From: a virus
Length of the DNA stretch: 54,199 nucleotides
IMG/VR virus record: IMGVR_UViG_3300009034_000050
Coordinates: 1-54,199 of that record
Reading direction: 5' to 3' (one strand)
The translations under genes were made by a program, and so were the position numbers. The notes beneath the pieces were generated by a model. The model did no database searches. It was not told where the DNA came from and was given only the letters and a program-made list of their open reading frames with translations. This document shows, piece by piece, positions 22,630-52,717 of the stretch; the stretch's first letter is position 1; each line of letters opens with the position of its first letter.

Positions 22630-23412
22630 ATGGCAGCAGCAAAGGAACTTTATATTGGCTCTGACAATTTGGTGTCATTGGAAGGACTGAAGAACCAGGA
22701 AACAGGTGCTTATGTAAATGATGCCACGGTTACTGTTTCCGTCTTTGAGCAGGTTGCCCTTCACCCTGACTGTTCAGAGCTCACCTTTACCAGTGGTGGT
22801 ACTGCTGAACTCGTAGTGGGAGATGTGGTTATAGGTGCTACGGGTGGTGCTACTGCTGAAGTGAAGTCTATTACACTGTCGGGAGGCACCTGGGCAGGAG
22901 GGGATGCTGCTGGACGGATGGAGATTATAAAGCAGCGCGGAATTTTTGAGGCAGAAAATCTAAATCAAAGGGATGGACAGGCTAATATTGCAACCATCGC
23001 TGCAGACTCTACCGGTGCCGAGTCAGCTAATGCAGGGAGTAAGACTAAGATACGGATGCGAGACCATGGCCTCAGGTCTATTGACTATGTTTATATACAA
23101 GGCAGTCAGGGTTACGATGGTGAATATGCAATTGATGCTGTAGAAGATGGGAAAATCACTATTCCGGCAGCCTACGTCGCCGAGAAGTTTACAGGTGATG
23201 AGCTTATCTATGTAGGCGTTGTCAGTGGGGTTAATATCTCCCTGAGTTATGTGGCTGCTTCTAATGGAAACTACCAGGGCATTCTGCCAGACACGATGAA
23301 AGCCTTAGCAGAGGCTGCGTGGTATTGGATTAAGGTTGTGGCGACTAAGGACACAACTAATTTGGTGGCTATGAAAAAGTATCAAGCAATCTTTTGTCAG
23401 AGTAATAAGTGA
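22630..23412 (+). CDS. Hypothetical virion-associated protein
   Basis: 260 residues, beta-rich. Contains SGGTAELVVGDVVIGATGG and a domain near residues 130-200 (MRDHGLRSIDYVYIQGSQGY with YDGEY and later FTGDELIYVG), a pattern seen in structural proteins of other phages. The 3' end overlaps the terminase start (TGATG). It may be a head decoration or adhesion component, but position before terL is unusual for head genes. Not assigned. Confidence 0.5.
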   Translation: MAAAKELYIGSDNLVSLEGLKNQETGAYVNDATVTVSVFEQVALHPDCSELTFTSGGTAELVVGDVVIGATGGATAEVKSITLSGGTWAGGDAAGRMEIIKQRGIFEAENLNQRDGQANIATIAADSTGAESANAGSKTKIRMRDHGLRSIDYVYIQGSQGYDGEYAIDAVEDGKITIPAAYVAEKFTGDELIYVGVVSGVNISLSYVAASNGNYQGILPDTMKALAEAAWYWIKVVATKDTTNLVAMKKYQAIFCQSNK

Positions 23413-24707
23413 TGTTGACGACTATGGAAATAAAGTGTGTGGGTGAGACAATTGCTTTGTATGAACCTCTTGCTGAGCCTCAGCGGGGCTTTCACAGGTC
23501 TCAGGCAGATATTCGGTGGCTATTTGGTGGTAATCAATCTAGCAAGACATATACCAATATGATGGATTTAGCTATGCTTGCCCTTAATATCCACCCCTTT
23601 TGTTCTACACCATGTGGAGTTCATTGGGCTTGCATCGAAAGTTGGGAGCAAGTGAGGGACATCCTTTGGGAAGAATATTTGAAGGAGTTTATTCCACGAC
23701 ATCAAGTCATATCTGTTTGGTATGGGCAAGATAAGGTTCCTCGAAAGGTATTCTTGAAGAACGGCCACTTGATAGAGTTCAAAGCATTCAATCAGGGTAG
23801 GGAGCTTTTCCAGGGTCGTGCAATAGATTCTTGCCACTGTGATGAGCAGTGTCACCACGACTTTCAGGGCATTTTTAATGAAATACAGGCAAGACTCCTA
23901 AAGGGGAAGGGCTTTCTTGCCTGGACTATGACCCCGATTATTCCGCAGCTGTTCTTGGAAGAAAGAATTGAGGATTTGCCGAAGACCGACGAGGTTTTCC
24001 ACGCAGACCTAAATAGTAACCGCATCAGCCAAGGTGGGTACATTTCGGACGAGCGAATTGACAGTATGATTGCTGAATGGCCCGAAGAAGTCCAGGCTAC
24101 TCGTATCAAGGGGCAGTTTGCAAGTTTTTATGGTGCAGTTTATAAGACGTTCAATAGGAGTATTCATACTATAAAGCCTTTTGAGATTCCAAAGGACTGG
24201 CCAAGATATAGGGGTTTCGATTTTGGGTTTACCAACCCATTTGTGTGTTTGTGGTTTACAAAGGATAAAGATGACAATTGGTACATCTACAGAGAATACT
24301 ACAGAGCAAAAACTAGTATTGGGGAGCATATTATTGCGGTGAGAAGGCTTAGCAAGGGTGAGTCTTATGTTGATTCATTTGCAGACCCAGAGAATGCAGG
24401 GGATAGGGCAGAGCTTCGCAAGGCGGGGATTATTAACAGACCTGCGAGAAAAGATATAGCCAAAGGGATCGAAGTGGTGCAAGGCAAACTTAAAGTGAAG
24501 CCGAATGGTAAGCCGAGCTTGTTTATTTTTGATACTTGTAGGAATACCTGCAAGGAGATAGCTATTTACCGGTATCCAGAGGGTACAAACCTTAAGAACC
24601 CAAAGGACATTCCTCTCCAAAAGGATGACCACACGGTTGATGTAGTTCGATACGTGCTCTATTCAACGGAGAAGCCCGCAAAGAAGGGAAGTATATATGT
24701 TGCCTAA
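23412..24707 (+). CDS. terL: Terminase large subunit
   Basis: 431 residues. ATPase motor: Walker A FGGNQSSKT near residue 40 and Walker B IDSCHCDEQ near residue 140. Nuclease domain: FDFGFTNPFVCLWF near residue 270, ADPENAGDRAEL near 325 and a final DDHTVDVVRYVLYS. It pumps DNA into the prohead and cuts concatemers. Its stop-start overlap with the previous gene gives tight coupling. The portal gene follows 15 nt later. Confidence 0.92.
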   Translation: MLTTMEIKCVGETIALYEPLAEPQRGFHRSQADIRWLFGGNQSSKTYTNMMDLAMLALNIHPFCSTPCGVHWACIESWEQVRDILWEEYLKEFIPRHQVISVWYGQDKVPRKVFLKNGHLIEFKAFNQGRELFQGRAIDSCHCDEQCHHDFQGIFNEIQARLLKGKGFLAWTMTPIIPQLFLEERIEDLPKTDEVFHADLNSNRISQGGYISDERIDSMIAEWPEEVQATRIKGQFASFYGAVYKTFNRSIHTIKPFEIPKDWPRYRGFDFGFTNPFVCLWFTKDKDDNWYIYREYYRAKTSIGEHIIAVRRLSKGESYVDSFADPENAGDRAELRKAGIINRPARKDIAKGIEVVQGKLKVKPNGKPSLFIFDTCRNTCKEIAIYRYPEGTNLKNPKDIPLQKDDHTVDVVRYVLYSTEKPAKKGSIYVA

Positions 24708-24722
24708 GGAAGTGAAACGAAT

Positions 24723-26060
24723 ATGACGGAAGAATCTAAAGCTAAGAAAAAAGGTAGAGTATTTGTTCAGACAAGCACAGGGAGGGTACTCCCTTTTCCA
24801 GAGCTGCGTAAAGCGGAGATACAGAAATCATCTCAGCAGGTTCAGCAGACTCAGCGGAAGCTCTTTGCAGATGATGTTATTACGCCACCTTACCCACCGG
24901 AGAGCTTCTTGGTGTTGTATGAATCTAATCCCGTTTTCTGGCGGTGTGTAAACCAATTGGCAATTGACGTGGCTGGTCTTGGTTGGTCATTACAATTGTG
25001 TGAGAATGCAAAGGAGGACAAGGCGGAGGCAGAAAGAATAAATGAGTTTTTGGAAAAGCCCAATTCCGGAGGGGAATACCTTAGAACCATCCTGAAGCAA
25101 CTTTTGATAGATTGGGGTACTATCGGATGGTTTGGGATAGAGGCAGTTCGGGATAACAAAGGAGGAGTTGCAGAAATATACCATATTCCCGCTCATACAT
25201 TTCGTATACATAAGTCAAAAGAAAAGTTCTGTCAAATCAGGAATAATAAAAAGGTGTGGTTCAAGAAGTTCGGGCTTGAGAAGGATATTTCTCCGAAGGA
25301 TGGTAAGGAAGGCAAGTTTAGTATTAAAACCCGTGCGAACGAATTGATATACTATAAGAACCACTATCCGAAGTCGGATCACTATGGTGCCCCAAATATT
25401 TTGCCAGCGGTGGGCGATGTCATAGGACTTATTGGTTTGCGGGATTATAACCTTGCCTTTTTTGAGAATTATGGAATACCTTCTGCTATTATCATTTTAG
25501 AAGGGGAGTGGGAAGCAGGGTCTGATAAGAAGATTTCAGAATTTCTTGAGAAGGAAATTAAGGGCAGTGAAAATGCTCACCGGACATTAGTTGTAAAACA
25601 GCAGGAGAATTGTGAATTCAAGTACACTCCCCTGGAGACTAAGGTAAAGGAGGGTAGTTTTAGATTGTATGAGCAGGTTCGCAGGGACCACATTCTAATC
25701 GCCTATTCTATGCCGCCGGAAAGGGTGGGGGTTAGGATGGTGGGTAAACTTGGTGGCAACGTCGCGGAGGAAGCTACTAAAATTTATGTACAGAGTGTTG
25801 TTGAACCCTTGCAGCTTGACCTGGAGTCTATTATAAACCAGCAACTGCTGCAGTCGGAAACATATAAGTTCAAATTTGAAGACATTGATTTGCGTAACTA
25901 TGCTGATGAGATTAAAAGAATGAACGAACAAATAGAGCACGGCACCCTAACCCCTAATGAGGCGCGCAATGAGCTTGGTTACAAATCCTATCCGGGTGGA
26001 GACAAGTTCTTTATGATGAGTAGTTTGATAGAAATAGGTGAAGCAGAGGAAGAAGAGTAA
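24723..26060 (+). CDS. Portal protein
   Basis: 445 residues, in the usual place after the terminase. Family-like features: PPYPPESFLVLYESNPVFWRC near residue 55, the GTIGWFGIEAVRD segment and IYHIPAHTFRI, then ELIYYKNHYPKSDHYGAPNI near residue 215. A C-terminal helical region follows with YSMPPERVGVRM and LTPNEARNELGY, the typical end of SPP1/PBSX-type portals. It forms the dodecameric ring through which DNA enters and leaves the head. The acidic end (EAEEEE) is unremarkable. Confidence 0.9.
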   Translation: MTEESKAKKKGRVFVQTSTGRVLPFPELRKAEIQKSSQQVQQTQRKLFADDVITPPYPPESFLVLYESNPVFWRCVNQLAIDVAGLGWSLQLCENAKEDKAEAERINEFLEKPNSGGEYLRTILKQLLIDWGTIGWFGIEAVRDNKGGVAEIYHIPAHTFRIHKSKEKFCQIRNNKKVWFKKFGLEKDISPKDGKEGKFSIKTRANELIYYKNHYPKSDHYGAPNILPAVGDVIGLIGLRDYNLAFFENYGIPSAIIILEGEWEAGSDKKISEFLEKEIKGSENAHRTLVVKQQENCEFKYTPLETKVKEGSFRLYEQVRRDHILIAYSMPPERVGVRMVGKLGGNVAEEATKIYVQSVVEPLQLDLESIINQQLLQSETYKFKFEDIDLRNYADEIKRMNEQIEHGTLTPNEARNELGYKSYPGGDKFFMMSSLIEIGEAEEEE

Positions 26061-26065
26061 GGTAG

Positions 26066-28351
26066 ATGCCAACAACTGCTAGAATAAAATCTAATCCAGT
26101 ACATGCCAAGCTGGATTGGCAGCTAAGGCTTAACGAGAAGGTCCTCTTGATGGCCCTCCGGAACTGGTTTGCTTCTACCACTAAGCAGATTCAGCTAGAC
26201 CTCAGAACAAAATTCCAGAAGGACATCACCTCAGACTTGACCAGCTGGGAAACCATCAGTGAGGAAGGGAAGGTGATGGTGAGACCGGCTACTTTAGATA
26301 TTGTAGATTCTGGAGGCAAAGCGGCTGATAAGGTTCTGAGGGCGAAGGTTCCCTTTGATAAGCTTAATCCTGAGGCCGTTAAAGCGGCTGACAAAATCTG
26401 TGCGGAGATGGTCCGAGAAGTTACAGGGGAGACTAAGAAGGCCCTTCGTTCTTACATCAGTGCAGGTATCAGAGAAGGCAAGTCGATGGACAGAATTGCC
26501 CGTGAGCTACGGCCTCTTGTGAGTTTAACTAAACACCAAACGGACTCTGTGGTTAACTATCGTAACTTGCTGCGTGAAAAGTCTCCGAGACTCCCCGAAA
26601 AGAGCGTCAACAAAAAAGTTGAGAGGTATGCTGCCAAGACGCAGCGCCGGCGTGTACAAACCATAGCCCGAACTGAAGCGGCTCGTGCACAGAACACCGG
26701 TTATGCCTTGTCAATGGGAGACATGGGAGTCGAGCAGTTAGAGTTTTCTGTAGCCTCTGGGTGTTGTAAGCTTTGTGAGTCGATGAACGAGCGGAAGTAT
26801 CCTCCGGAGAAGGCAGGAGCTGTTATTCCTGTACATCCCAACTGCCGCTGCTGCATGTTACCTGTGGTAGATGACGTCCCCACTTGTCGGGGGGAGAAAG
26901 GGGAGGTTGCAAAAAAGGCTTGTATACGTCCTAGCAATCTGCATGATGAGCAGGTAAAGGACTTGCTGAACAGGTTGGAGAGAGTCAAGGACCCCGCTGA
27001 AGGGAGGAAAGTACGCAGAGCTTTAAGGAGACTGGGGCATAAAGGAGGATTAAGAGCTGAGCCCACTGTCCCTACTGCTCCTAGGGTCAAACCTACAAGA
27101 CTTAAACCTTCTAAGCTGCCTCACGCTGTCACTGTAGATGAGGAGTACTGGCATGTTACTACCCAGGCAGCAGCTAAGAACATAAAGAAAGAAGGTTTTA
27201 AGATAATAGAGGCCGAGGTTGGAGGTAAGATTTACGGCAATGGTATTTATTTGGGAAGCTACGAGGATAAGAAGGCGCTGCAGTTCTATCAAAGTTTCAT
27301 TAGAGCCTCCAAACGAAAGGTGATGAAGGTCCCAGTCCGGGTTAATGGGCTATTGGAAGTGATGGTAAAACCCGCTCAGGAGTTTGGCAAGACTTGTGCA
27401 CAGGCGGCAAGGCACGCAGGACTTAACAAGCAGTACCAGCAAGCGAAGTCTCGGATCCTAGCCAAGAACAGGGAAATAAATCGCCGCTTGCAGAAGCAGC
27501 CTTTGATGAGTCGCAGGCTAGAGCAGGAGTGGCTGCGTCAACAAGGACTTCTGGAATACCCCGAAGGGGCTGCCCTACAAGAGGTACTAACTAAGAGGGG
27601 CTATAACGGTGTCAAGATAATTGCTAAAGGGAGGTTTACTACTGAGGTTGGAGGTAGTCAAGTAGTTGTTTATGACACTAAGATACTTAACGCGGGTATG
27701 AAGGGGTTAAAACGCAAGCCTCCCGTTGCCGTTGCTGAACCAGCCGCCCGGCCTAAAATGCTCTCTCATAAACTAAATGAGCCTAACTGGAAACAACAAG
27801 CAAAGTGGGAGGCCTCTCTGTCTAAAGAGGAACTAAAGGCTGTTAAGGCGTGGGGTAGGGGGATGGATGAGTTTTGGGAATTAAAATATGGACTAGTGGG
27901 AAAGAAACCTCCGCTGGAGGCAGATATAATACGTGAGTTGTCCTCAGAAGCTCGTAAAAAGCTAGTAGCGACCTTTAAGGGTGTGGTGGACAAGTCCCCC
28001 CTCTATAAGGGAGAAGTTTGGCGCGCTATGGGCCTGTCATCAAAGAAGACTTTGAACAAAAAGTTCGTCAGAAACAGGACAGTAACCTTTAATCATACAC
28101 AAAGTTCGTCGAGAGTTAAAAGAGTCACTTCGGATTTTATGGACTGGGCTGACATGGAAGGGGAAGTACCTGTTTTGCTAAAGGTTCAGACTAAGACTGG
28201 AACCTACATTGGTAAACACTCCTACCAAAAACAAGAGGAAGTGCTGTTACACCACGGCACAAAGTATAAAGTTAAAAGTGTAAAGGTTGCACAGGACCCT
28301 GAATTTTTCTTCGGGAATAAATATCATGAAGTTGCTTTAGTCGAGTTGTAG
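26066..28351 (+). CDS. MuF head protein fused to two ADP-ribosyltransferase-like domains
   Basis: 761 residues. Residues 190-275 carry the MuF core (RTEAARAQNTGY, then GCCKLCESMNERKYPP and HPNCRC). Residues 297-329 hold a module ending LRRLGHKGG that recurs in two early-strand proteins. Residues about 357-542 look like an ADP-ribosyltransferase: YWHVTT (H363), YGNGIYLG (Y395), closing GYNGVKII and GGSQVVVYD. Residues about 567-761 look like a second, exoenzyme-type domain with R653 (EVWRAMG), NHTQSSSR at 676-683 and Q723-E724-E725 before VLLHHGTKYKV. MuF proteins are internal head proteins, so the ART domains could be injected with the DNA and modify host proteins. Enzyme activity is unproven. 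Confidence 0.8.
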   Translation: MPTTARIKSNPVHAKLDWQLRLNEKVLLMALRNWFASTTKQIQLDLRTKFQKDITSDLTSWETISEEGKVMVRPATLDIVDSGGKAADKVLRAKVPFDKLNPEAVKAADKICAEMVREVTGETKKALRSYISAGIREGKSMDRIARELRPLVSLTKHQTDSVVNYRNLLREKSPRLPEKSVNKKVERYAAKTQRRRVQTIARTEAARAQNTGYALSMGDMGVEQLEFSVASGCCKLCESMNERKYPPEKAGAVIPVHPNCRCCMLPVVDDVPTCRGEKGEVAKKACIRPSNLHDEQVKDLLNRLERVKDPAEGRKVRRALRRLGHKGGLRAEPTVPTAPRVKPTRLKPSKLPHAVTVDEEYWHVTTQAAAKNIKKEGFKIIEAEVGGKIYGNGIYLGSYEDKKALQFYQSFIRASKRKVMKVPVRVNGLLEVMVKPAQEFGKTCAQAARHAGLNKQYQQAKSRILAKNREINRRLQKQPLMSRRLEQEWLRQQGLLEYPEGAALQEVLTKRGYNGVKIIAKGRFTTEVGGSQVVVYDTKILNAGMKGLKRKPPVAVAEPAARPKMLSHKLNEPNWKQQAKWEASLSKEELKAVKAWGRGMDEFWELKYGLVGKKPPLEADIIRELSSEARKKLVATFKGVVDKSPLYKGEVWRAMGLSSKKTLNKKFVRNRTVTFNHTQSSSRVKRVTSDFMDWADMEGEVPVLLKVQTKTGTYIGKHSYQKQEEVLLHHGTKYKVKSVKVAQDPEFFFGNKYHEVALVEL

Positions 28352-28353
28352 AG

Positions 28354-28461
28354 GTGAAAAGAAGAAAGAAAATTCCGAGACGTTTACGTCGGTGGCTAGG
28401 AGGAGTAGAAGATGTTAAGTTGGTTATTGCAAAACTTAGTAAGAAGGTAGCGCCTAAATAA
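28354..28461 (+). CDS. Tiny basic protein
   Basis: 35 residues, GTG start 2 nt after the previous stop. Strongly basic (KRRKKIPRRLRRWLGG) then an amphipathic helix (VEDVKLVIAKLSKKV). Too short to classify. It could be a packaged DNA-binding peptide or noise. Confidence 0.35.
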   Translation: MKRRKKIPRRLRRWLGGVEDVKLVIAKLSKKVAPK

Positions 28462-28497: not shown

Positions 28498-29895
28498 ATG
28501 AGGATAGAAGAAACGGATAAGGTTAAACTTGCCAAAGCGTACGACAAAGAGTTGCTTATCCTCAAGTTGAGGTTCACACAGGTCTGGGATAAGAGCTTTA
28601 GGGATAATAACGCTGCTGCAGTAGGGAGCCTGAGTCGGAATGCCTTTCTTAAGAAATACAGGCTGCTTTTAGGTGAGATGAATTCTCGTAAGTTGGAGCA
28701 CAGTACTAGTGCTATTGACAGGGCGGCCTTCAAGAAGGCAATGGCAGTAAACAAATTCGGCATCGATGTAACCGATTTTGAAGATGTGGTTGTTATGTCA
28801 AACTGTATTGTGGTTGATGCAGATTCCATAAATCTTGAAGAGGTTGAGTCTCTTGTAGAGAAACGACGTTCAGACCTCTCCGAAACGTTTGAACAGGAAG
28901 AGGAGAGGGAGAAGGCCTTTATACCTCTCTACGACCTTGTGCTGCGTGCAAGACAGGAAACGGTAAAGGTTGAGATACAGAAGCCCTATCCAAACGAGCA
29001 TTCAGCACGCTTACAAAGTCCAGACATGGCTCACATAAGAGTCAGGAGAACAAAGGGTGGCAAAGTGCAAGGTGTTACAGTGCCGGCAAGTATTAGTATT
29101 GTTTGGTATGTAGCATTAAAGAATGGCAAGGAAGTACCCATTCCACAGGCATTACGGTTCCCAACAAAAGATTGGACAGTGACTAAGGCGAAGAAGTGGT
29201 TGAGTGATAATGACATAACGTCTACGAAGTTTGAGCCGGCTACCAAGGTAGGTAAAGCCATCTGGAGTACAAAGTACATTAACAAGTTGCCGGATTCTGC
29301 GTTTCTGTACATTGAGTCTGGTGGTGAGAAAGATGACGAGGGCAAAACTAAGCCGAGAGGTCTGCGACACTTTCCTTACAAAGGAAGCGATGGTAAAATT
29401 GATTTGCCCCATCTGAGAAATGCAATAGCAAGAATACCTCAAAGCAAACTGTCTGGAAGTCTTAAGAATACACTTCAGGCAAAGGCAAGGAAGATTCTTG
29501 AAGAGATAAAGAAAGGAATAGTGTTTGAGAAATTTATTTCGGTGTATCCTGTCGATAAGGCGGACAAGGATGAGCACATAGTGTGTGGTGTTGTGTACGA
29601 GCCTGATGTAGTTGACGCTCAAGGTGATAAGGCCAACGAGGCTGAGATCCGTAAAGCTGCTCATCAGTTTATGGAGAAAGTTCAGACATTCAGGGTCAAT
29701 CACGAAGGTAAAAAGGTTAGGGTAAAAGTCCTTGAAAGCTATTTGGCTCCTATGGATTTTACAGTTGTAAATAAGTCTATTAAAAAGGGAAGTTGGGTGC
29801 TTACAGTTCGAGTGCTTGACAAGAAGATTTGGGAGACTGTAAAGTCTGGAGACCTTACAGGGTTTAGTATGGCTGGTTATGCCAAGGCCAGTTAA
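28498..29895 (+). CDS. XkdF-like capsid maturation protease
   Basis: 465 residues. The C-terminal third matches the XkdF group of prohead serine proteases: HIVCGVVYEPDVVDAQGDK, KAAHQFM, FRVNHEGKKV (candidate His) and the final GDLTGFSMAGYA (candidate Ser). Upstream are a long helical region, a segment with PYPNEHSARLQSP, and LPHLRNAIARIPQSK near residue 310, both of which recur in similar phage proteins. It would cleave scaffold and capsid precursors inside the prohead. The part of XkdF that normally follows seems to be in the next gene. Confidence 0.75.
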   Translation: MRIEETDKVKLAKAYDKELLILKLRFTQVWDKSFRDNNAAAVGSLSRNAFLKKYRLLLGEMNSRKLEHSTSAIDRAAFKKAMAVNKFGIDVTDFEDVVVMSNCIVVDADSINLEEVESLVEKRRSDLSETFEQEEEREKAFIPLYDLVLRARQETVKVEIQKPYPNEHSARLQSPDMAHIRVRRTKGGKVQGVTVPASISIVWYVALKNGKEVPIPQALRFPTKDWTVTKAKKWLSDNDITSTKFEPATKVGKAIWSTKYINKLPDSAFLYIESGGEKDDEGKTKPRGLRHFPYKGSDGKIDLPHLRNAIARIPQSKLSGSLKNTLQAKARKILEEIKKGIVFEKFISVYPVDKADKDEHIVCGVVYEPDVVDAQGDKANEAEIRKAAHQFMEKVQTFRVNHEGKKVRVKVLESYLAPMDFTVVNKSIKKGSWVLTVRVLDKKIWETVKSGDLTGFSMAGYAKAS

Positions 29896-30931: not shown

Positions 30932-32020
30932 ATGAAGACGAATAAGCGTCTGCTGAGTAGAAAGCAGCAGATTGAGAAGATGATCAGCCTTCCTACAATC
31001 ACCTTGGCTGCTGAGGAGGCTGACAGGTTCCTTGACTACATTGTCGATGAGTCTGTTATGAAGAACAAGGCACGGTTCATCAAGATGAACAAGGCAGTTC
31101 AGAATATTCGTGCCTTGGGTTTGGGTACTGGTGACTTTTTGCATCCGGGCGATACGTTTAGCTCTTCGGAGTATAAAAAGACTTTGAGCCACAACAAAAT
31201 TGAGCTAATCAGCAAAAAGGTTCGTGGCTGCATTGCCATCTTTGATGACGACCTTGAGGACAACATTGAGGCCGATGCCTTTGCAGACCATTTGATGAAA
31301 ATGGTTGCCAAGAAGATTTCAAATGAGCTTGATATTGCCTACTGGATTGGTGACACTGGTTCTGGTAATGCCTTTGGTGATACAGACATCAGGAGCCTGT
31401 GGGACGGCTGGCGTTTTAGAATTGTCAATGGTGACACTGACGGGGATACTTATTACAATGACGTTTCCGGCGGTTCCACGGTACTGGACGCAACAGCTGA
31501 CTTCACAATTGCTGGTCGAATTGGTATGGTTGCAAACACTGCACCTTACCTTTGGGAGTTCAAGTATGACAAGCTTCTGTCTACCCTGCCTTCCAAGTAC
31601 AAAACTGCTGGGTTGGCTAACCTTTCATTCTACAACAGTGACAAGGTAACCCAGAATTACATTGAGGCTTTGGCGGCACGGTCAACCATATTGGGTGACG
31701 CAGCAATACTTGGTACGGCTGAACCCAAGTACGGTTTGGTGCCAATTACGTCCTGCCCCAATATGCCAACCGTAATGGCTGGTGACACTCAGGCAACAGA
31801 GGCGTGCACTGGTGGAGCTTATGCTGACTCTATTATCACTCCAAATGGCAACCTTGTCATTGGTATGCAAAGAGATATCAGAATTGAGTCACAAAGAGAA
31901 GCGGCAGATGAAGCTACCTACTGGTTCTACTCAATGAGATGTGTTCCTGCTATTGAGAATGTCAACGCCGTTGTGATGGCAAGGAAGTTGACCGTTACCG
32001 GGACGATGATTGAGGCATAA
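30932..32020 (+). CDS. Major capsid protein
   Basis: 362 residues, AAGGAGATAG before the ATG. Typical head-protein layout: helical N-terminus (RFLDYIVDESVMKNKARFIK), LGLGTGDFLHPGDTF, an E-loop-like stretch SKKVRGCIAIFDDDLEDNIE, the spine helix FADHLMKMVAKKISNELDIAYW, and late beta structure. This fits the HK97-fold capsid family by position and size, between scaffold and decoration genes. No obvious processing site is visible. Assembled under the control of the portal and scaffold genes just upstream. Confidence 0.85.
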   Translation: MKTNKRLLSRKQQIEKMISLPTITLAAEEADRFLDYIVDESVMKNKARFIKMNKAVQNIRALGLGTGDFLHPGDTFSSSEYKKTLSHNKIELISKKVRGCIAIFDDDLEDNIEADAFADHLMKMVAKKISNELDIAYWIGDTGSGNAFGDTDIRSLWDGWRFRIVNGDTDGDTYYNDVSGGSTVLDATADFTIAGRIGMVANTAPYLWEFKYDKLLSTLPSKYKTAGLANLSFYNSDKVTQNYIEALAARSTILGDAAILGTAEPKYGLVPITSCPNMPTVMAGDTQATEACTGGAYADSIITPNGNLVIGMQRDIRIESQREAADEATYWFYSMRCVPAIENVNAVVMARKLTVTGTMIEA

Positions 32021-44310: not shown

Positions 44311-45386
44311 TTTGAACTCCTTGCCCCTCCCTTATGTCCCAGCCTTCTAAGTGTAGCTCTAATCTTACGTCGTTCTGCTTTATCTTTGGAGCTCTTAAGT
44401 TTTTGGACCAGCAAATCTACATTCTTCTGGTCAGCTACCACTTCAGCAGGCTTACCTCTGCCTTTAGTCCCTTTGCTGCGGTCATCGGCTACCCTGTCAA
44501 GAACTACTCCCTCAGCCAAAGAAGGTATTTTACCCTTAAGCCCAAGAGCCTGGCTGGTTAGGTCCATCTCAATCCTCATGCTTGGGTCCTTCTCAGGGTC
44601 ATCCCCAGTGAAAGTCATTACTCTATATCCCCCTGAGCGCAGGGCAGTGTCTCGATACTCCTTAAGCTTTAGGATGATTTTGTCTAATGTTTCAAGTCTG
44701 CCAATTCTAATAGTAGGCTTTGCAGCCTTCTGCCCAAGTTCCTCCACCGTATCAAAGGAACCTTCACATTTGTGATAGAACCACTTGTTTGCGGCAGCGC
44801 AGAGGTCTGCGTTGAGAGATTGTAAGTCGGTACGGGGGTCTTCTTCTGTATAGTGCAAGGTATCGACGCTGTAAGTCTTGTCTTTGTATTTTACATGCAG
44901 ATCAACTCCATAGGCAGAGCCCCCTCCTTCGATAGTCATCTTGCGCCACCACCCATAAAATTCTCCTCCTTCAGCTTTGAATCGGAAGTTGACAGTGTAT
45001 TTATCCCATTTGATGTTGAACTGGTGAAACCCTTTTGAAGTGAACTCTTCTGTGTCCCCCTCTTGTACACGTCTCAAATCTTTAAGTTTTATGTCGAGTA
45101 CGTCTCCATCGTCAAATAAAACCTTTGCTTTAGTTTTGGTCAACTCTGATATGGAGCCTGGATAAGGCTCTCCATCAAAGTCGGCCACTATGCGGTCATC
45201 CTCTTTCCATTGAACTTTCCTACGTTTTGACATACCTTGCCCCTTTCCTTTGATGTAGATGAAAGTACCTACACTTCCACAACTGGAGCACTGCAGATGA
45301 GAGAGGTCCAAATCTTCTCTCATCATACCTTCTGCAGAGCCACAGCTTCTACACACTATTTTATAAGAATATTGTTTCATTATCAT
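44307..45386 (-). CDS. Multidomain protein: zinc ribbon, Tudor-like domain and LGHKGG tail
   Basis: 359 residues. Start CRSCGSAEGMM and CSSCGSVG give one zinc ribbon. An internal ATG (about 45233) with its own purine-rich site could begin a shorter form. Tudor-like segment WKEDDRIVADFDGEPYPGSI through LFDDGDVLDI strongly resembles that of the SSB-like protein at 2065-3069. A middle domain (residues 110-290) is unknown. The last 35 residues end RRKIRATLRRLGHKGG, a module also in the MuF-ART protein and in 45658-46365. Probably nucleic-acid associated. Confidence 0.65.
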   Translation of the reverse strand: MIMKQYSYKIVCRSCGSAEGMMREDLDLSHLQCSSCGSVGTFIYIKGKGQGMSKRRKVQWKEDDRIVADFDGEPYPGSISELTKTKAKVLFDDGDVLDIKLKDLRRVQEGDTEEFTSKGFHQFNIKWDKYTVNFRFKAEGGEFYGWWRKMTIEGGGSAYGVDLHVKYKDKTYSVDTLHYTEEDPRTDLQSLNADLCAAANKWFYHKCEGSFDTVEELGQKAAKPTIRIGRLETLDKIILKLKEYRDTALRSGGYRVMTFTGDDPEKDPSMRIEMDLTSQALGLKGKIPSLAEGVVLDRVADDRSKGTKGRGKPAEVVADQKNVDLLVQKLKSSKDKAERRKIRATLRRLGHKGGARSSK

Positions 45387-45657: not shown

Positions 45658-46365
45658 TTACGAAGCTGCCTTCTTTTTGGAGACCTTCTTAGCCTTTTTG
45701 ACAGCCTTCTTAGGTCGGCCTCCTCCTTTACCAAGACCTCCTCGATGCCCAAGGTTTCGAAGCTCCACTCGGAACTGCCTCTTCTCACCCTGGTCAGTAG
45801 CTTTCGCCAAGTCTTGTAGCAGCTTCTTAATCCTTGATTGTTTATTACCCTTAGCCATTTCTGTATCTCCTACGGTCCTTACTGATTTACGGCCTTTGAC
45901 AGGACCCTTGCCGAAGACCTTTTCATATAGTTCTAATTCTCTACGCCTTTCGTAGCATAGCAACTTTACTTGTTTTTGTAAGTAATCTAACCATTTAGGT
46001 AGTTTCTCAAGAGCTATGTCTAAGTTTTGTAGGTTGCTGACTACTAAGTTTGCCATCCTTTCAATGTCTTGGCTACCGTTGCCTAAGACCCTCTTGAAAT
46101 TGAGCATATTTTGGAAGGTTTGGCCTAACTTCCTTTGTATTTCCCTAGCCTCCTTGCGGAGAGGTCTATCCTTAATCTCATCAGGAAACAGACGACCGAC
46201 TCGATGGGGGTTAAGAGTGTATCTGCGTTTGCGTTTAGCCAGGAGTTTAGACTTGTGTTCAGCTCCAACTATACTTTGGGCCTCTTTATAGAGCTGGTCA
46301 GCCTGTTTTACCAACCTCCTTAAGTCAGCACTTATTTCTTTGACGATTTCATTTGCTGTTTTCAT
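45658..46365 (-). CDS. Basic helical protein with LGHxGG tail module
   Basis: 235 residues from ATG 46365 (AAGGAGCAAGGC upstream). All-helical and basic, with a conserved-looking RKRRYTLNPHRVGRLFPDEI and DYLQKQVKLLCYERRREL. Near the end are IKKLLQDLAKATDQGEKR and LRNLGHRGG, the module shared with the MuF-ART protein and the 44307-45386 protein. The final tail is KKAVKKAKKVSKKKAAS. First gene after the 46412-46440 promoter, suggesting strong early expression. Confidence 0.6.
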   Translation of the reverse strand: MKTANEIVKEISADLRRLVKQADQLYKEAQSIVGAEHKSKLLAKRKRRYTLNPHRVGRLFPDEIKDRPLRKEAREIQRKLGQTFQNMLNFKRVLGNGSQDIERMANLVVSNLQNLDIALEKLPKWLDYLQKQVKLLCYERRRELELYEKVFGKGPVKGRKSVRTVGDTEMAKGNKQSRIKKLLQDLAKATDQGEKRQFRVELRNLGHRGGLGKGGGRPKKAVKKAKKVSKKKAAS

Positions 46366-46839: not shown

Positions 46840-48855
46840 TTAAGCACTCTTCTTTAGGTCAAAAATTTGCTGTAGTTTAATCTCTTTTTTGTGGGCCCAA
46901 CATCTAAGAGCCACGGCTAGGCCTACAGTGATAGGGACATAATAAGTCTTTAGGTCTTCCATAAACTTTATCAGTCTGGGCACTGCCTTTCTCTCCTCAC
47001 TGTGTGGTATTTCAAAGACGAGCTCGTCGTGGATAGTCATAAGTATTTTGGTTTTTAATCCTTCTTCTTGTAGCCACTCCCAGATTGTCACCATAGCTTT
47101 CTTTATTTGGTCGGCTGAAGTACCCTGGCACATATAATTAAGAGCTTTATAACTGAATTTATTGGGGATATAATAACGTCTGCCAAAGGGGTTAGTAATA
47201 TAGCCTCTCTGCCTAAGTTGATGAGAAAGTTTTTTGGCAGTTCGACGAACCGAAGGATATATACCATGATACTTAGTTATGAACCGTAAAGCTTCCGCTT
47301 CAGTCGTGGGAGACCCTCTTCTGGAGAGAGTTTCTGCCATAGTAGCAGATCCCGAGCCGTATATTACTGCAAAGTTGATAGAGCCTGCTCTTTCTCTTTC
47401 TTCCTTGCTAATCTCTTCAGGGGGCTTTTTATACATATCCGAGGCGGTCCACCTATGCAAATCGGATGAAAGTCTATCCGCCATCTTCCTATCGTGTGAA
47501 AAATGTACATAAAACCTCATCTCAACCTGCTCGTAGTCGGGGAGCCAGAACTTCCTCCCTTTTCGAGGTATGAAACATTCACGGGGACCTAATAGTCTGG
47601 GCATGTTCTGCAGGTTAGGCCGAGACGAGCTAAATCTGCCTGTTGCTGCCTCACTTGGGTTGAACTTACAGTGTAGAACACCTGTCTCCCTACCTGCAGG
47701 CGTGACATATACATCTACACAATCCTCTATTAGATGTCTATAATAAGTAGACACTAGTTTGCTTAACTCACGGTACTTAAGAATTAAAGGAGGCAACAAC
47801 TCACGTTTGTGTAGACGATGTTTTGCAACAGTTAGGTAAAGAGTGGAATAAAACTTGTCTATACTCCAGTGTTCCAGACTGGATTTATGTAACATATTAG
47901 CCAAAGGCTTTGAAACATATCTAATTAAAGCATACTCGTCAAATGACCAATTGCCCCCTCCTGATTTTCTTCCTCCTTTCTTCCTGCTCTTCTTCGGCTT
48001 GGTTTTGTATTTAAGTGGTATACCTAGCTTAATGAAGGCCGCTGGCAAATGTGACATAGAACTATTTGAGTTGAAGGTGTCAACGATTACTTCAACCCTT
48101 TTACCTTTCTTCTTTCGCAGGATAGTTAGGGGACACACCAATTTGTCCAGGTCCTTTTGTATCTTTTTTATGCCCCGTTCGGCTTCTTTACATAACTGTT
48201 TAGCCTTAGTTATATCAATCAAAACTCCAGTGTTTTCCATGTCGATGCAAACAGGTATGAGCCTCCTCTCTGTCTCATATAATTCTGGACATCTATCAGA
48301 GACTAGAGGCCACAATTTCTGAAATAACAACAGAGTGGTTTTAGCATCCCATGCAGCACGGCGTTTTACCAAGGGGATAGGGGCATCCTTAAAAGTGGGT
48401 TTACGTCCGTACTCCTTAGTGAAACTGCGTCCATTACTTTTAATCCAGTTCTCTATTTGGTCCTTGTCACTGGAGTCCTGATGTAGGTATTTTCTGCTCA
48501 AATACCTTAGATTATGTAGTATTTCCACTGAATCTAATACCTTAGACATGGTCATAGTACAATGTATCTTGGCTTTCAATTTGAGTACATTTATACCCTC
48601 AAAAGAAAGCATCTCCAAGTCATATTTAGCATTCTGAAAGACTATCTTCTTTCTGGGGTCATTCAATAATTTCTCCAACCAGGCAAGACTGCGTTTGTTT
48701 TTAGATATAAATCCCTCCTCACCACGGTCGCTATAGTAAGCCCAGCAGAACACACGATCTCCATGATGGGGGTCTAACCCGTCTGTCTCTGTATCTATCC
48801 CAATTACGTTACCTTTTAGATTGGGTAAGATAGTTGTATTGCGATTATACCGCAC
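46840..48855 (-). CDS. DNA polymerase I family (family A)
   Basis: 671 residues: a 3'-5' exonuclease domain (GIDTETDGL near residue 20) and a polymerase domain, without a 5' nuclease. Motif A is LPDYEQVEMR (about 438-447), motif B RERAGSINFAVIYG (487-500), motif C TIHDELVFEI near residue 612. The helix-O Lys expected between the Arg and the Phe (E. coli Lys758) is Gly491 here, while Phe762 is kept as F495. It replicates the phage genome with the MCM-like helicase. ATG overlaps the dCMP deaminase gene by 40 nt. Confidence 0.92.
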   Translation of the reverse strand: MRYNRNTTILPNLKGNVIGIDTETDGLDPHHGDRVFCWAYYSDRGEEGFISKNKRSLAWLEKLLNDPRKKIVFQNAKYDLEMLSFEGINVLKLKAKIHCTMTMSKVLDSVEILHNLRYLSRKYLHQDSSDKDQIENWIKSNGRSFTKEYGRKPTFKDAPIPLVKRRAAWDAKTTLLLFQKLWPLVSDRCPELYETERRLIPVCIDMENTGVLIDITKAKQLCKEAERGIKKIQKDLDKLVCPLTILRKKKGKRVEVIVDTFNSNSSMSHLPAAFIKLGIPLKYKTKPKKSRKKGGRKSGGGNWSFDEYALIRYVSKPLANMLHKSSLEHWSIDKFYSTLYLTVAKHRLHKRELLPPLILKYRELSKLVSTYYRHLIEDCVDVYVTPAGRETGVLHCKFNPSEAATGRFSSSRPNLQNMPRLLGPRECFIPRKGRKFWLPDYEQVEMRFYVHFSHDRKMADRLSSDLHRWTASDMYKKPPEEISKEERERAGSINFAVIYGSGSATMAETLSRRGSPTTEAEALRFITKYHGIYPSVRRTAKKLSHQLRQRGYITNPFGRRYYIPNKFSYKALNYMCQGTSADQIKKAMVTIWEWLQEEGLKTKILMTIHDELVFEIPHSEERKAVPRLIKFMEDLKTYYVPITVGLAVALRCWAHKKEIKLQQIFDLKKSA

Positions 48856-49241
48856 TGTTCTAGTCTTTCAAGGCCCTTAGGGTTTTTATAGTCTTCACAG
48901 TAGAAAACTCGAGAGATATTTGATTGAGCAATTAGGTTGGCACACATTTCACAGGGAGCCATAGTGACAAAGAGAGTCTTCTTAGGTATGGTCCCGTCTA
49001 CCATTGCAATTGCATTCATTTCAGCATGAAGGCAACCGCAATCTCCCGAAATTCCCCTACAAGCTAAGTTGTCCAGTTGTTTTGGGGGCCCGTTGTATCC
49101 TGTGCTAAGCACCAATCTTTGATTATTGGTGGTTATGACACAGCCTATTTTTCTGCCTTCTTGTCTACAAAGCGACCGGGCTGCCCATAGGTAAGCAGTT
49201 TTTATATAAATTGTCTCACGCGTGGGTCGTTCATCAAACAT
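48816..49241 (-). CDS. Deoxycytidylate (dCMP) deaminase
   Basis: 141 residues. Zinc-site motifs CLHAEMNAI (HAE) and MAPCEMCANLI (PCxxC) are intact. It deaminates dCMP to dUMP, feeding ThyX. The C-terminus overlaps the polymerase start. A homing endonuclease gene lies directly upstream (8 nt overlap). Confidence 0.9.
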   Translation of the reverse strand: MFDERPTRETIYIKTAYLWAARSLCRQEGRKIGCVITTNNQRLVLSTGYNGPPKQLDNLACRGISGDCGCLHAEMNAIAMVDGTIPKKTLFVTMAPCEMCANLIAQSNISRVFYCEDYKNPKGLERLEQCGIIAIQLSYPI

Positions 49242-49641: not shown

Positions 49642-50427
49642 TTAGAATATCTCCCTTTCTTTCATGTCCTTGGCATAAGCATGTAGCGAACCACAGAACC
49701 AAGTAAAAGTTCCAACATCTAGTTCTAATTTGTCACTGAACCAGTCCTGCAATAACAACGCAAGACTGATATCTACAGGAAAATGTGTTAAGAAATCGCA
49801 AGAGCGCATAGCGTAAATGAAGTCAACCTTCTCTTCTCTAATCATAATTTGGTAATACATTGAGCAAGGTATGCGCCCTCCTCCCCCTCGATTATGTAGG
49901 TCAGCACTCCACCCTACAAAATTGGTGTCCTGACCAGTGTCTTTAAGTTGCCTGTCTATTTGAGGACAGATGTTGCTGTGGATGTTAATGATGGCTTGAC
50001 GGCTTTCTGGGTTAGTCTGTAACTCTCCTAGGATAGTCGGTAATTGTGGTGTTATACGCTCGCTGTAAGTATAAGCAAACTTACCACCATGTAAAAACTC
50101 CTCCCACAGATCTTTTCGGTATAGGTAAGCTTTGCCTGGATTGTGGGCACTGCCGCACACTCGCTCTCTAAACTCTGCTAAAATGTAAGTAAGCACGTCG
50201 TCAGCTTTGTTCTTAAAGAAATGTTCCATCACTTGTTTGACTACAGCCATATTCCAGGACCAATTTACTATTTTGAATGCGTAACCCCTAATCTCTTTGG
50301 TAAGGTAATCAGGATTGTCCTTTACAATTTTATCTTGCATAGACTGAGGCCATACTTCAATTCCCATTTCCCATAACTCACGTTCTGTCTCGTTAACTGC
50401 TTCATATAAATTTGTATAAATCCTCAT
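49642..50427 (-). CDS. Thymidylate-synthase-fold enzyme, probable dCMP hydroxymethylase
   Basis: 261 residues; ATG 50427 has AAAGGAG upstream and overlaps the previous stop. ThyA-family features: NNP-like region, catalytic Cys (C188) in GRIPCSMYYQ, MRSCDFLTHFPVDI at 207-220, and GSLHAYAKD at 246-254. The residue equivalent to Asn177 of E. coli ThyA is Asp219, the change that favours cytosine in dCMP hydroxymethylases such as T4 gp42. ThyX already covers dTMP synthesis. So the likely product is 5-hydroxymethyl-dCMP from dCMP and methylene-tetrahydrofolate. Whether it enters DNA is unknown. Confidence 0.75.
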   Translation of the reverse strand: MRIYTNLYEAVNETERELWEMGIEVWPQSMQDKIVKDNPDYLTKEIRGYAFKIVNWSWNMAVVKQVMEHFFKNKADDVLTYILAEFRERVCGSAHNPGKAYLYRKDLWEEFLHGGKFAYTYSERITPQLPTILGELQTNPESRQAIINIHSNICPQIDRQLKDTGQDTNFVGWSADLHNRGGGGRIPCSMYYQIMIREEKVDFIYAMRSCDFLTHFPVDISLALLLQDWFSDKLELDVGTFTWFCGSLHAYAKDMKEREIF

Positions 50428-51008
50428 GGTCTCTGCTCCTTTTCGACAAATTCCTTCGCCCATTTCAAATGTTTAACTAAATCTCGAGTGGCTCCCTTAC
50501 CTCTCCTAAGACAATACGCTGGGTGCCAAGTAGTCTTAATATAAGCGTTAGGCCAAGGACCATAGAAAAAATACTCACTACCTGTATTCACACTTGCTCC
50601 AAAACCCAAAGCGGCTGTGGCAACTCTACCCAATAGTAATATTACTTTTGGCTTGACAATGTCAACCTCTGCTTTAAGAAAGGGCCTACAAGCATCAAGT
50701 TCCTTAGGAGTTGGGGACCTGTTTTCAGGTGGCCGACAACGGCAAGCGTTAGTTATGTATACTAAGTTTTGCATGTCAAGGCCCCTACCTCTAAGCAGTT
50801 TGTCTAGGAACTTACCCGCCCTACCACAGAACACCTTGCCAGTTTTCTCCTCAGCAGAACCTGGCGCTTCGCCAATCAACATAATCGGGGCCATAACATT
50901 TCCCTTACCTAGTATACAAATGTTACTGCTAGTCCTATAGAGTTCACAATCTCTGCAGTTCAAATTTCTAAGCCTCTGTAGTCTAATTTCCTTACCTCTG
51001 CGATTCAT
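50424..51008 (-). CDS. Uracil-DNA glycosylase, family 4 type
   Basis: 194 residues. Features: CRDCELY near residue 18, GEAPGSAEEKTGKVFCGRAG (about 47-66), ACRCRPPENRSPTPKE (Fe-S Cys and Arg/Pro), and the late TTWHPAYCLRR. This is the 4Fe-4S uracil-DNA glycosylase family that removes uracil from DNA. It may guard the phage genome against misincorporated dUMP from the deaminase route, or serve other base-processing. Overlaps both neighbours. Confidence 0.9.
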   Translation of the reverse strand: MNRRGKEIRLQRLRNLNCRDCELYRTSSNICILGKGNVMAPIMLIGEAPGSAEEKTGKVFCGRAGKFLDKLLRGRGLDMQNLVYITNACRCRPPENRSPTPKELDACRPFLKAEVDIVKPKVILLLGRVATAALGFGASVNTGSEYFFYGPWPNAYIKTTWHPAYCLRRGKGATRDLVKHLKWAKEFVEKEQRP

Positions 51009-52054: not shown

Positions 52055-52717
52055 CTAGTAATTCGTCTTCTGTCTCCACTTATTGATTATGTGTTTTTTG
52101 CAGTATAACACATATACCTGTTTTTGGCCACACCCTAAATCCTTCCATAGGTTTATAAAGGCTAACCACACAGCAAAGAGTTTAATCCTGAACTGGCCTA
52201 TATCGGTGGGCATCTGTGTCACTTTCCAGGGTTTATTCTTAAAGACGTTGGCTGCAGAACCCATTTTGAAGATGACTTGGGCCATGTGTTTTTCAACTGG
52301 CTGCGTGTCCCCTAGAGAGGTTTTGATAACCGGTAACTTATTGAACAAGATGTTAAGCTCCTGAAAATTTGCTATGATGGAAGCCTCAACTAGGAAATGC
52401 AAAGCGTCCGATAGTTCTTCAAAGAAGTGTCTTATGCTAGTTTCAGTATTCCAAAACTCAGTCCATTTTGATAGTTGAAAGAGAGGAGGTAAAGTCTCTA
52501 GTGCCTCACTTAACTCTTCAGTAGCTCTCCAGAACATGTCTTTAATTCGGGCCTGCACTTTGGAATCATCTAAATTGTAAGGGGGTTCAGGAACTTGAAA
52601 ACCATTATCTCTTTCAATTCCATCATACTTCACCATAAGTTCCTTCTGCATTTTGAATATGACCGCCAAGGGCTCTTCAGGGAGTTCTATTTTTTGTACT
52701 ATATCGTCTATGTTCAC
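52055..52717 (-). CDS. All-alpha dUTPase/MazG-like nucleotide pyrophosphohydrolase
   Basis: 220 residues, GTG start overlapping the previous stop (GTGA), AAAGGAG upstream. Metal-binding pattern TEELSEALE (about 69-77) and RHFFEELSDALHFLVEA (about 100-116), then the C-terminal YCKKHIINKWRQKTNY, which recalls dimeric dUTPases. It would hydrolyse dUTP or a related NTP to the monophosphate, lowering dUTP. Fits the pyrimidine cluster. Confidence 0.75.
   Translation of the reverse strand: MNIDDIVQKIELPEEPLAVIFKMQKELMVKYDGIERDNGFQVPEPPYNLDDSKVQARIKDMFWRATEELSEALETLPPLFQLSKWTEFWNTETSIRHFFEELSDALHFLVEASIIANFQELNILFNKLPVIKTSLGDTQPVEKHMAQVIFKMGSAANVFKNKPWKVTQMPTDIGQFRIKLFAVWLAFINLWKDLGCGQKQVYVLYCKKHIINKWRQKTNY

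What the first reader, a model, noticed from the sequence alone, without database searches (positions are those of the whole stretch)
26066..28351. Head protein (MuF) fused to two different ADP-ribosyltransferase-like domains
Seen: MuF core (about 190-275), then one ART-like domain with YWHVTT and YGNGIYLG (357-542), then a second exoenzyme-like domain with R653, a Ser cluster at 680-682 and Q723-x-E725 (567-761). Known: MuF domains are used as delivery modules for toxins, and T4 packages an ART (Alt). Inferred: this phage carries two ART effectors inside its head. The QxE form of the last motif, rather than ExE, hints at a target other than Arg.
Basis: partly seen in the sequence, partly recalled or inferred. 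Interest (0 to 1): 0.85.

Follow-up and report, generated by a model that had tools for sequence, protein, structure and literature searches.

The report
Head protein carrying two NAD-using effectors
A virus of microbes carries a head protein whose tail end holds two different NAD-using enzyme domains, probably injected with the viral DNA; in related viruses this tail end is a replaceable cassette that swaps between different effectors while the rest of the protein stays the same.

Summary
Window 26066-28351 (+) is one intact 761-aa ORF in the portal - MuF - XkdF-protease - capsid block. After the MuF core come a 40-aa basic module and two ADP-ribosyltransferase (ART) domains of different clades. 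ART2 (566-761) is a secure R-S-E (VIP2/Vis-like) ART: AlphaFold pLDDT 89, pTM 0.84, Foldseek E 5e-11, and R653, S680 and E725 are conserved across 16 relatives. ART1 (357-542) is PARP-like: profile E 1e-5 with clean negative controls, H363 and Y395 present, Gln532 where PARPs have catalytic Glu; its own model is poor (pLDDT 54).

The larger finding lies in about 100 related IMG/VR loci. The MuF C-terminus is an exchangeable effector slot holding nothing, one ART, three ARTs (L034), four ARTs (L043), ART plus HExxH peptidase, peptidase alone, zeta-type kinase or GNAT. Two viruses 98.6% identical on both flanks carry unrelated ARTs (29% identity) in the slot.

MuF-ART fusions are published; two ART clades on one MuF protein, and three to four in tandem, I did not find described. 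Packaging, injection, activity and targets are inferred, not shown. The MuF-toxin family's "temperate phages only" trait is not met.

The parts
24723..26060 (+). portal protein (445 aa), directly upstream
   Evidence: Pfam Phage_portal E 9e-33; phrog_12 E 3e-47
26066..28351 (+). MuF-ART1-ART2 head protein (761 aa)
26066..26881 (+). MuF core (aa 1-272), including CCKLC 233-237 and HPNCRCC 257-263; conserved part in relatives
   Evidence: PHROG MuF families; 42-55% identity to 19 relatives
26945..27064 (+). 40-aa basic module (LLNRLE...RKVRRALRRLGHKGGL) at the core/cargo junction; recurs in other proteins of the same virus and of relatives
27134..27691 (+). ART1, PARP-like HY-type ART domain (aa 357-542); H363 at 27152, Y395 at 27248, Gln532 at 27659 in the place of catalytic Glu
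   Evidence: model weak
27395..27595 (+). helical insertion inside ART1 (about aa 444-510), absent from the PARPs aligned
   Evidence: alignment A3, helices in the low-confidence model
27761..28348 (+). ART2, R-S-E (VIP2/Vis/Alt-like) ART domain (aa 566-761); R653 at 28022, S680-682 at 28103-28111, Q723 at 28232, E725 at 28238
28354..28461 (+). 35-codon GTG ORF between MuF stop and protease gene; no relative found, doubtful gene
28498..29895 (+). XkdF-type head maturation protease (465 aa); its gene marks the downstream edge of the exchange region in relatives
   Evidence: Pfam Peptidase_S78_2 E 1e-31
30932..32020 (+). virion structural (major capsid-type) protein used to find relatives
   Evidence: phrog_1623 E 2e-48

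Best explanation
The gene encodes a MuF-type minor head protein whose C-terminus is an exchangeable effector cassette. In this virus the cassette is a PARP-like ART (ART1) followed by a VIP2/Alt-like ART (ART2). Shown by sequence and structure computation: MuF core, ART2 fold with a complete R-S-E triad, ART1 motifs and profile kinship, and replacement of the cassette between near-identical relatives. Inferred: the protein is built into the head near the portal in low copy number, the cargo enters the cell with the DNA, and the two enzymes use host NAD+ to modify host proteins at the start of infection (T4 Alt style), ART2 perhaps on Asn/Gln/Cys rather than Arg (QxE). If active, ART1 most likely transfers single ADP-ribose units, because the PARP Glu is Gln. 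Rapid cassette exchange suggests selection by differing hosts or host defences.
For: MuF core and gene order portal-MuF-protease-capsid. ART2: AlphaFold pLDDT 89.4/pTM 0.84, 145 PDB matches at E<=1e-3, the 50 listed all ARTs, family profile E 4e-17 to Vis and 4.5e-14 to the PAAR-repeat ART of entry 6dre, invariant R and S, E in at least 90% of 16 sequences. ART1: with negative controls 106, 107; Gln532 opens a predicted strand as the PARP Glu does. Cassette exchange: L033 and L107 98.57% identical over 2651 b upstream and 2928 b downstream, cargo 29% identical; cargo type shows no clustering on the MuF tree, 17 changes against 17.1 for shuffles. Multi-ART relatives with 3 and 4 ARTs. Precedents: MuF toxins (PMC5576092), virion-packaged phage ARTs (PMC9503650), a MuF-ART toxic in yeast through its ExE glutamates (PMC3000352), PARP1 E988Q is a mono-ART (PMC5552275).
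Against: No virion proteomics or enzyme assay exists. ART1's third residue is Gln and its model is poor. No homologue of ART1 was found in the related viruses. No immunity gene was recognised, so nothing independent marks the window cargo as toxic.
Confidence: 0.68

Rival explanations
1. The cassette counters host defence rather than taking over the host: the injected ARTs modify or switch off antiviral proteins, or consume/process NAD-derived signals, and cassettes are swapped to match defences.
For: Rapid exchange without phylogenetic signal fits an arms race; PMC9503650 argues that virion-packaged NAD/ADP-ribose enzymes counter host immunity.
Against: No target known; the ARTs resemble protein-modifying toxins, not signal-degrading enzymes. 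Overlaps with the main explanation in delivery.
Confidence: 0.15
2. It is a classical MuF polymorphic toxin: a weapon used by phage or lysogen against competing bacteria, with a protecting immunity protein.
For: MuF domain, variable C-terminus, packaging-gene position (PMC5576092); in relatives one HExxH cargo type is always followed by a conserved 86-aa ORF, a candidate immunity protein.
Against: Published MuF toxins are confined to temperate phages; no tyrosine or serine recombinase family hit in the window or in 10 of 13 large records searched, window included. No immunity gene after the window's ARTs, and no ADP-ribosylhydrolase or macro domain.
Confidence: 0.08
3. One or both ART domains are catalytically dead and serve in head structure or as binding modules.
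For: ART1 has Gln for the catalytic Glu.
Against: ART2 keeps the whole triad while most other positions vary; head assembly does not need the cassette, since many relatives lack it.
Confidence: 0.07
4. ART1 is not an ART; the HxT and GNGIYL motifs are chance matches in a linker domain.
For: AlphaFold pLDDT 54, no Foldseek hit at E<=1e-3; hhalign covers only the first 43 residues.
Against: Profile scores far above shuffles and controls; the listed Foldseek hits, though weak, are nearly all ART-superfamily proteins; motif order and spacing match phage PARPs through GYxG...QVVVYD.
Confidence: 0.1

Closest known systems
MuF polymorphic toxins (Jamet et al. 2017, PMC5576092)
   Same: N-terminal MuF, variable C-terminal toxin including ARTs and metallopeptidases, gene in the packaging module.
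   Different: Two ARTs of different clades here; lineage mostly without integrase; no clear immunity ORF for the ART cargo; cassette replacement seen between near-identical viruses.
Phage MuF-VIP2 fusions (Microbacterium phages Percival, Goodman, PMC7302621); Enterococcus EFV toxin (PMC3000352)
   Same: MuF plus C-terminal R-S-E ART; Goodman and Johann also have no temperate features.
   Different: One ART only as described; ExE in EFV, QxE in the window.
Mesyanzhinovviridae minor head proteins (e.g. Stenotrophomonas phage vB_Sm_QDWS359, 1197 aa)
   Same: MuF N-terminus and a C-terminal R-S-E ART homologous to ART2.
   Different: A long middle region with an HExxH stretch instead of the PARP-like ART; ExE.
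Microbacterium phage Schubert gp4 (MuF fused to an HY-type ART)
   Same: MuF followed by an ART with H and Y motifs similar to ART1.
   Different: No R-S-E ART; Glu at the third position.
T4 Alt
   Same: R-S-E ART packaged in the head and injected with DNA (PMC5512222).
   Different: Not a MuF protein; a single ART.
Polyvalent proteins (Iyer et al. 2017, PMC5512222); giant protein in L136 (3923 aa) and PfWMP3_26-like protein of Leptolyngbya phage Lbo-JY12
   Same: Several effector domains in one virion-type protein; L136 and the Leptolyngbya phage protein also combine HY-type and R-S-E-type ARTs (the HY domain of the Leptolyngbya protein by motif only).
   Different: Much larger and not MuF-based as far as read; the 2017 survey says R-S-E ARTs are absent from genuine polyvalent proteins.

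Membership tests
MuF polymorphic toxins | N-terminal MuF domain | tested here: met
   PHROG head/MuF families E 1e-19 to 1e-21 over the core; Pfam MuF alone is sub-threshold in the window (15.8 against 29.6 bits) but over threshold in most relatives scanned
MuF polymorphic toxins | variable C-terminal toxin domain | tested here: met
   toxicity itself untested
MuF polymorphic toxins | gene in the DNA-packaging module | tested here: met
   between portal and head protease
MuF polymorphic toxins | small downstream immunity ORF (under 150 aa) | tested here: inconclusive
   35-codon GTG ORF without relatives
MuF polymorphic toxins | found only in temperate phages | tested here: not met
   no PF00589 or PF00239 in the window contig, controls ring; the contig may be incomplete
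R-S-E clade ARTs (VIP2/Alt/Vis-like) - ART2 | ART fold | tested here: met
R-S-E clade ARTs (VIP2/Alt/Vis-like) - ART2 | Arg, S-[ST]-[ST], [EQ]xE motifs in order | tested here: met
   R653, S680-682, Q723xE725
R-S-E clade ARTs (VIP2/Alt/Vis-like) - ART2 | NAD-dependent ADP-ribosylation | not testable with these tools
   needs assay
HY-[EDQ] clade / PARP-like ARTs - ART1 | His and Tyr motifs (HxT, GxGIYL) | tested here: met
   H363, Y395; profile E 1.2e-5
HY-[EDQ] clade / PARP-like ARTs - ART1 | third residue Glu, Asp or Gln on a late strand | tested here: met
   Gln532 aligned with the PARP Glu; alignment in this half is weaker
HY-[EDQ] clade / PARP-like ARTs - ART1 | ART fold | tested here: inconclusive
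   pLDDT 54, pTM 0.44; best Foldseek hits ARTs at E 0.01-1; the alignment behind the model was made of PARPs, so partly circular
Polyvalent proteins | several distinct effector domains in one virion-delivered protein | tested here: inconclusive
   two effector domains plus MuF; delivery untested

The most novel reading that the evidence does not exclude
A largely integrase-free viral lineage uses the MuF head protein as a universal injected-effector slot. Whole cassettes of one to four enzymes, some with a dedicated downstream partner gene, are replaced by recombination, and a 40-residue module spread over several proteins of the same virus is a sorting or packaging tag that brings effectors into the head. 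The window virus pairs two ART clades so that one injected molecule hits two host targets.
Probability: 0.25. Interest if true: 0.8.

Novelty: new variant of a known kind. Interest (0 to 1): 0.58.

Why it matters
Injected phage enzymes are hard to find. Here a head-protein slot reveals them by position, and natural pairs of near-identical viruses with different cargo give ready-made comparisons for host range and counter-defence. Two ART clades on one head protein, and arrays of three to four ARTs, suggest that one virion delivers several NAD-dependent activities, widening the T4 Alt paradigm to uncultivated viruses that mostly show no sign of lysogeny.

Tried and rejected
Close relatives of the whole protein: none in viral contigs. 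ART1 relatives: none in phages at E<=1 and one partial PARP match at E 2, none in 39 related records, none confirmed with alignment A2; a degenerate DNA pattern then gave phage PARPs. An HMM of polyvalent-protein-type HY ARTs did not score ART1 clearly above shuffles (5.4 against 4.1 bits), so that label was dropped in favour of 'PARP-like'. Host: one weak MAG match only, so host unknown; the portal's best annotated matches are methanogen viruses at about 31% identity, too weak to name a host. Immunity by ADP-ribosylhydrolase or macro domain: none. QxE as a clean clade marker: rejected, since the four QxE domains need two changes on the tree and most inner branches are weak. A Pfam scan of the module-bearing proteins failed on a wrong coordinate and was not repeated.

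Full report
What is there. The window is G000, an IMG/VR virus record of 54,200 bases, about 43% G+C, with no tRNA and no exact terminal repeat. The finding's ORF is intact: 761 aa from ATG at 26066, six bases after the portal gene. Upstream lie a large terminase (23409-24707) and the portal (24723-26060); downstream an XkdF-type head protease (28498-29895) and the capsid-type structural protein (30932-32020). The replication part has a family A DNA polymerase, SNF2-like helicase, PD-(D/E)XK nuclease, ThyX, a thymidylate-synthase-like protein, UDG, a dUTPase, dCMP deaminase and an MT-A70 methylase.

Domains. The N-terminal 272 residues are a MuF head protein (20-sequence alignment A1). Residues 293-332 are a short basic module.

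ART2. Pfam alone is weak (E 3e-4), but relatives settle it. In 16 domains from related viruses the two invariant columns are R653 and S680, and E725 is conserved in at least 90%. The family profile hits the Vis ART at 4e-17, the PAAR-repeat ART of entry 6dre at 4.5e-14 and VIP2 at 6e-11. AlphaFold gives pLDDT 89.4 and pTM 0.84; Foldseek finds 145 PDB matches at E<=1e-3, the 50 shown all ARTs. The third motif is QxE here and in three of the four ARTs of L043; ExE in L034, L018, L055, L073, L107, L118 and the cultured relatives; LxE in L033 and L067. A published rule assigns QxE to Asn/Gln/Cys targets and ExE to Arg (PMC3000352).

ART1. A profile of phage PARPs collected with a DNA pattern hits P0001 with 23.8 bits, the best of 200 shuffles reaching 4.7. 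The pattern was designed on the window motifs, so the set is not independent of them, but hhalign against 24 of these PARPs gives probability 81% and E 1.2e-5, whereas the MuF core and ART2 give below 1%. The alignment puts H363 and Y395 on the PARP His and Tyr, and Gln532 on the PARP catalytic Glu (NNEYIVY against GSQVVVY). A helical insertion of about 65 residues interrupts the domain. The AlphaFold model is poor (pLDDT 54, pTM 0.44), rests on an alignment of PARPs, and its Foldseek hits are weak, but they are almost all ART-superfamily proteins (MbcT, KptA, ParT, PARP1, PARP2, PARP13). I put ART1 at about 0.85 for being an ART. If active it is more likely a mono-ART: the matching E988Q change turns PARP1 into one (PMC5552275).

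The slot. Using the capsid protein and the MuF alignment I collected about 100 loci and read their MuF genes. The C-terminus is missing in many (264-321 aa proteins). There is one R-S-E ART in L033, L107, L055, L015 and L018; three in L034/L065/L066; four in L043 (Pfam E 1e-19 and 1e-22; domain hits); ART plus HExxH peptidase in L067, L073 and L118; HExxH proteins in L010, L014, L038, L054, L094, L102 and L114; a zeta-toxin-type kinase in L019 (E 4.5e-18) and a weak GNAT match in L060 (E 0.005). In L028/L110 the ART is the next gene instead of a fusion. Intein-like inserts interrupt the MuF core at HPNC in several. The HExxH label rests on the motif read by eye; Pfam gave no peptidase family for L014.

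Exchange. L033 and L107 are 98.57% identical over 2651 b upstream and 2928 b downstream, but the region between the end of the MuF core and the protease gene is unrelated at DNA level and the encoded ARTs are 29% identical. L102 and L029 share a MuF of 89% identity, one with an HExxH cargo and one without. On a MuF tree of 36 rows the cargo types need 17 changes, as many as shuffled labels (17.1). ART2's closest relative is the fourth ART of L043 (51-53% identity, starred support), although L043's MuF is not the window MuF's closest. The slot is therefore a replaceable cassette. I have no near-identical partner of the window virus, so exchange is shown for relatives, not for the window itself.

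Partner genes. Each MuF whose cargo ends in the HG[IV]LTGAI HExxH domain (eight loci, five distinct) is followed at once by a conserved 86-aa ORF found nowhere else in these loci, a candidate immunity protein. The ART cargos have nothing comparable; after the window gene there is only a 35-codon ORF. No ADP-ribosylhydrolase or macro domain was found.

Lifestyle. No tyrosine integrase or serine recombinase in the window or in most large relatives (10 of 13 records searched, window included, have neither), with controls ringing. Published MuF toxins were reported only from temperate phages (PMC5576092), but MuF-VIP2 fusions are also known in Microbacterium phages described as having no temperate features (PMC7302621), so this is not unique.

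How it probably works. By precedent (SPP1 gp7, a MuF protein, sits with the portal in one or two copies per capsid, PMC5576092; T4 Alt is injected with DNA, PMC5512222), the protein would sit in the head and enter with the DNA. With so few copies, catalysis rather than stoichiometry must do the work, and two enzymes per molecule could widen the range of targets. All of this paragraph is inference.

What is known and what is new. Each ingredient is known: Alt/VIP2-type and N4-type ARTs on MuF (PMC9503650), several ARTs per polyvalent protein (PMC5512222), cultured MuF-R-S-E and MuF-HY fusions. I found no description of the two clades together on a MuF protein, of three to four ARTs in tandem on one, or of cassette exchange between near-identical viruses; the literature search was limited to open papers. 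The pairing of the two clades recurs in unrelated virion-type giants: L136 (same order, with further R-S-E domains) and a Leptolyngbya phage protein (reverse order, HY part by motif only).

Noticed in passing
window 26945-27064 (+), 44316-44420 (-), 45733-45834 (-); also L034, L054, L018, L048, L073, L214, L215, L228, L230: A basic module of about 40 residues (LLxxLxxxxDxAExRKIRxxLRKLGHxGG) occurs in several otherwise unrelated proteins of the same virus (three in the window, five copies in each of two relatives), at the C-terminus or between domains. Possibly a sorting, binding or packaging tag; function unknown.
   Followed up: partly
L014 7128-7388, L038 7172-7429, L094 3805-4062, L073 3679-3939, L067 7603-7779 (all +): Conserved 86-aa ORF directly after each MuF gene ending in the HG[IV]LTGAI HExxH cargo and nowhere else in the loci searched: candidate cognate immunity protein.
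   Followed up: partly
L013, L062, L105, L115, L051, L120, L121, inside the MuF gene: Intein-like insertions at the conserved HPNC motif of MuF, of at least two unlike types.
   Followed up: no
L019 7140-7391, L010 7075-7323, L054 7259-7486 (+): Small Cys-rich ORF (CxxC...CxAFPdgIP) after MuF genes with zeta-type or other HExxH cargo.
   Followed up: no
L136, 3923-codon ORF on the - strand: Giant protein with one PARP-like ART and about seven R-S-E ART-like stretches.
   Followed up: partly
window 49642-50463, 50424-51008, 52055-52717, 48816-49241 (-): Thymidylate-synthase-like protein, uracil-DNA glycosylase, dUTPase and dCMP deaminase in one cluster: possible modified-base metabolism.
   Followed up: no
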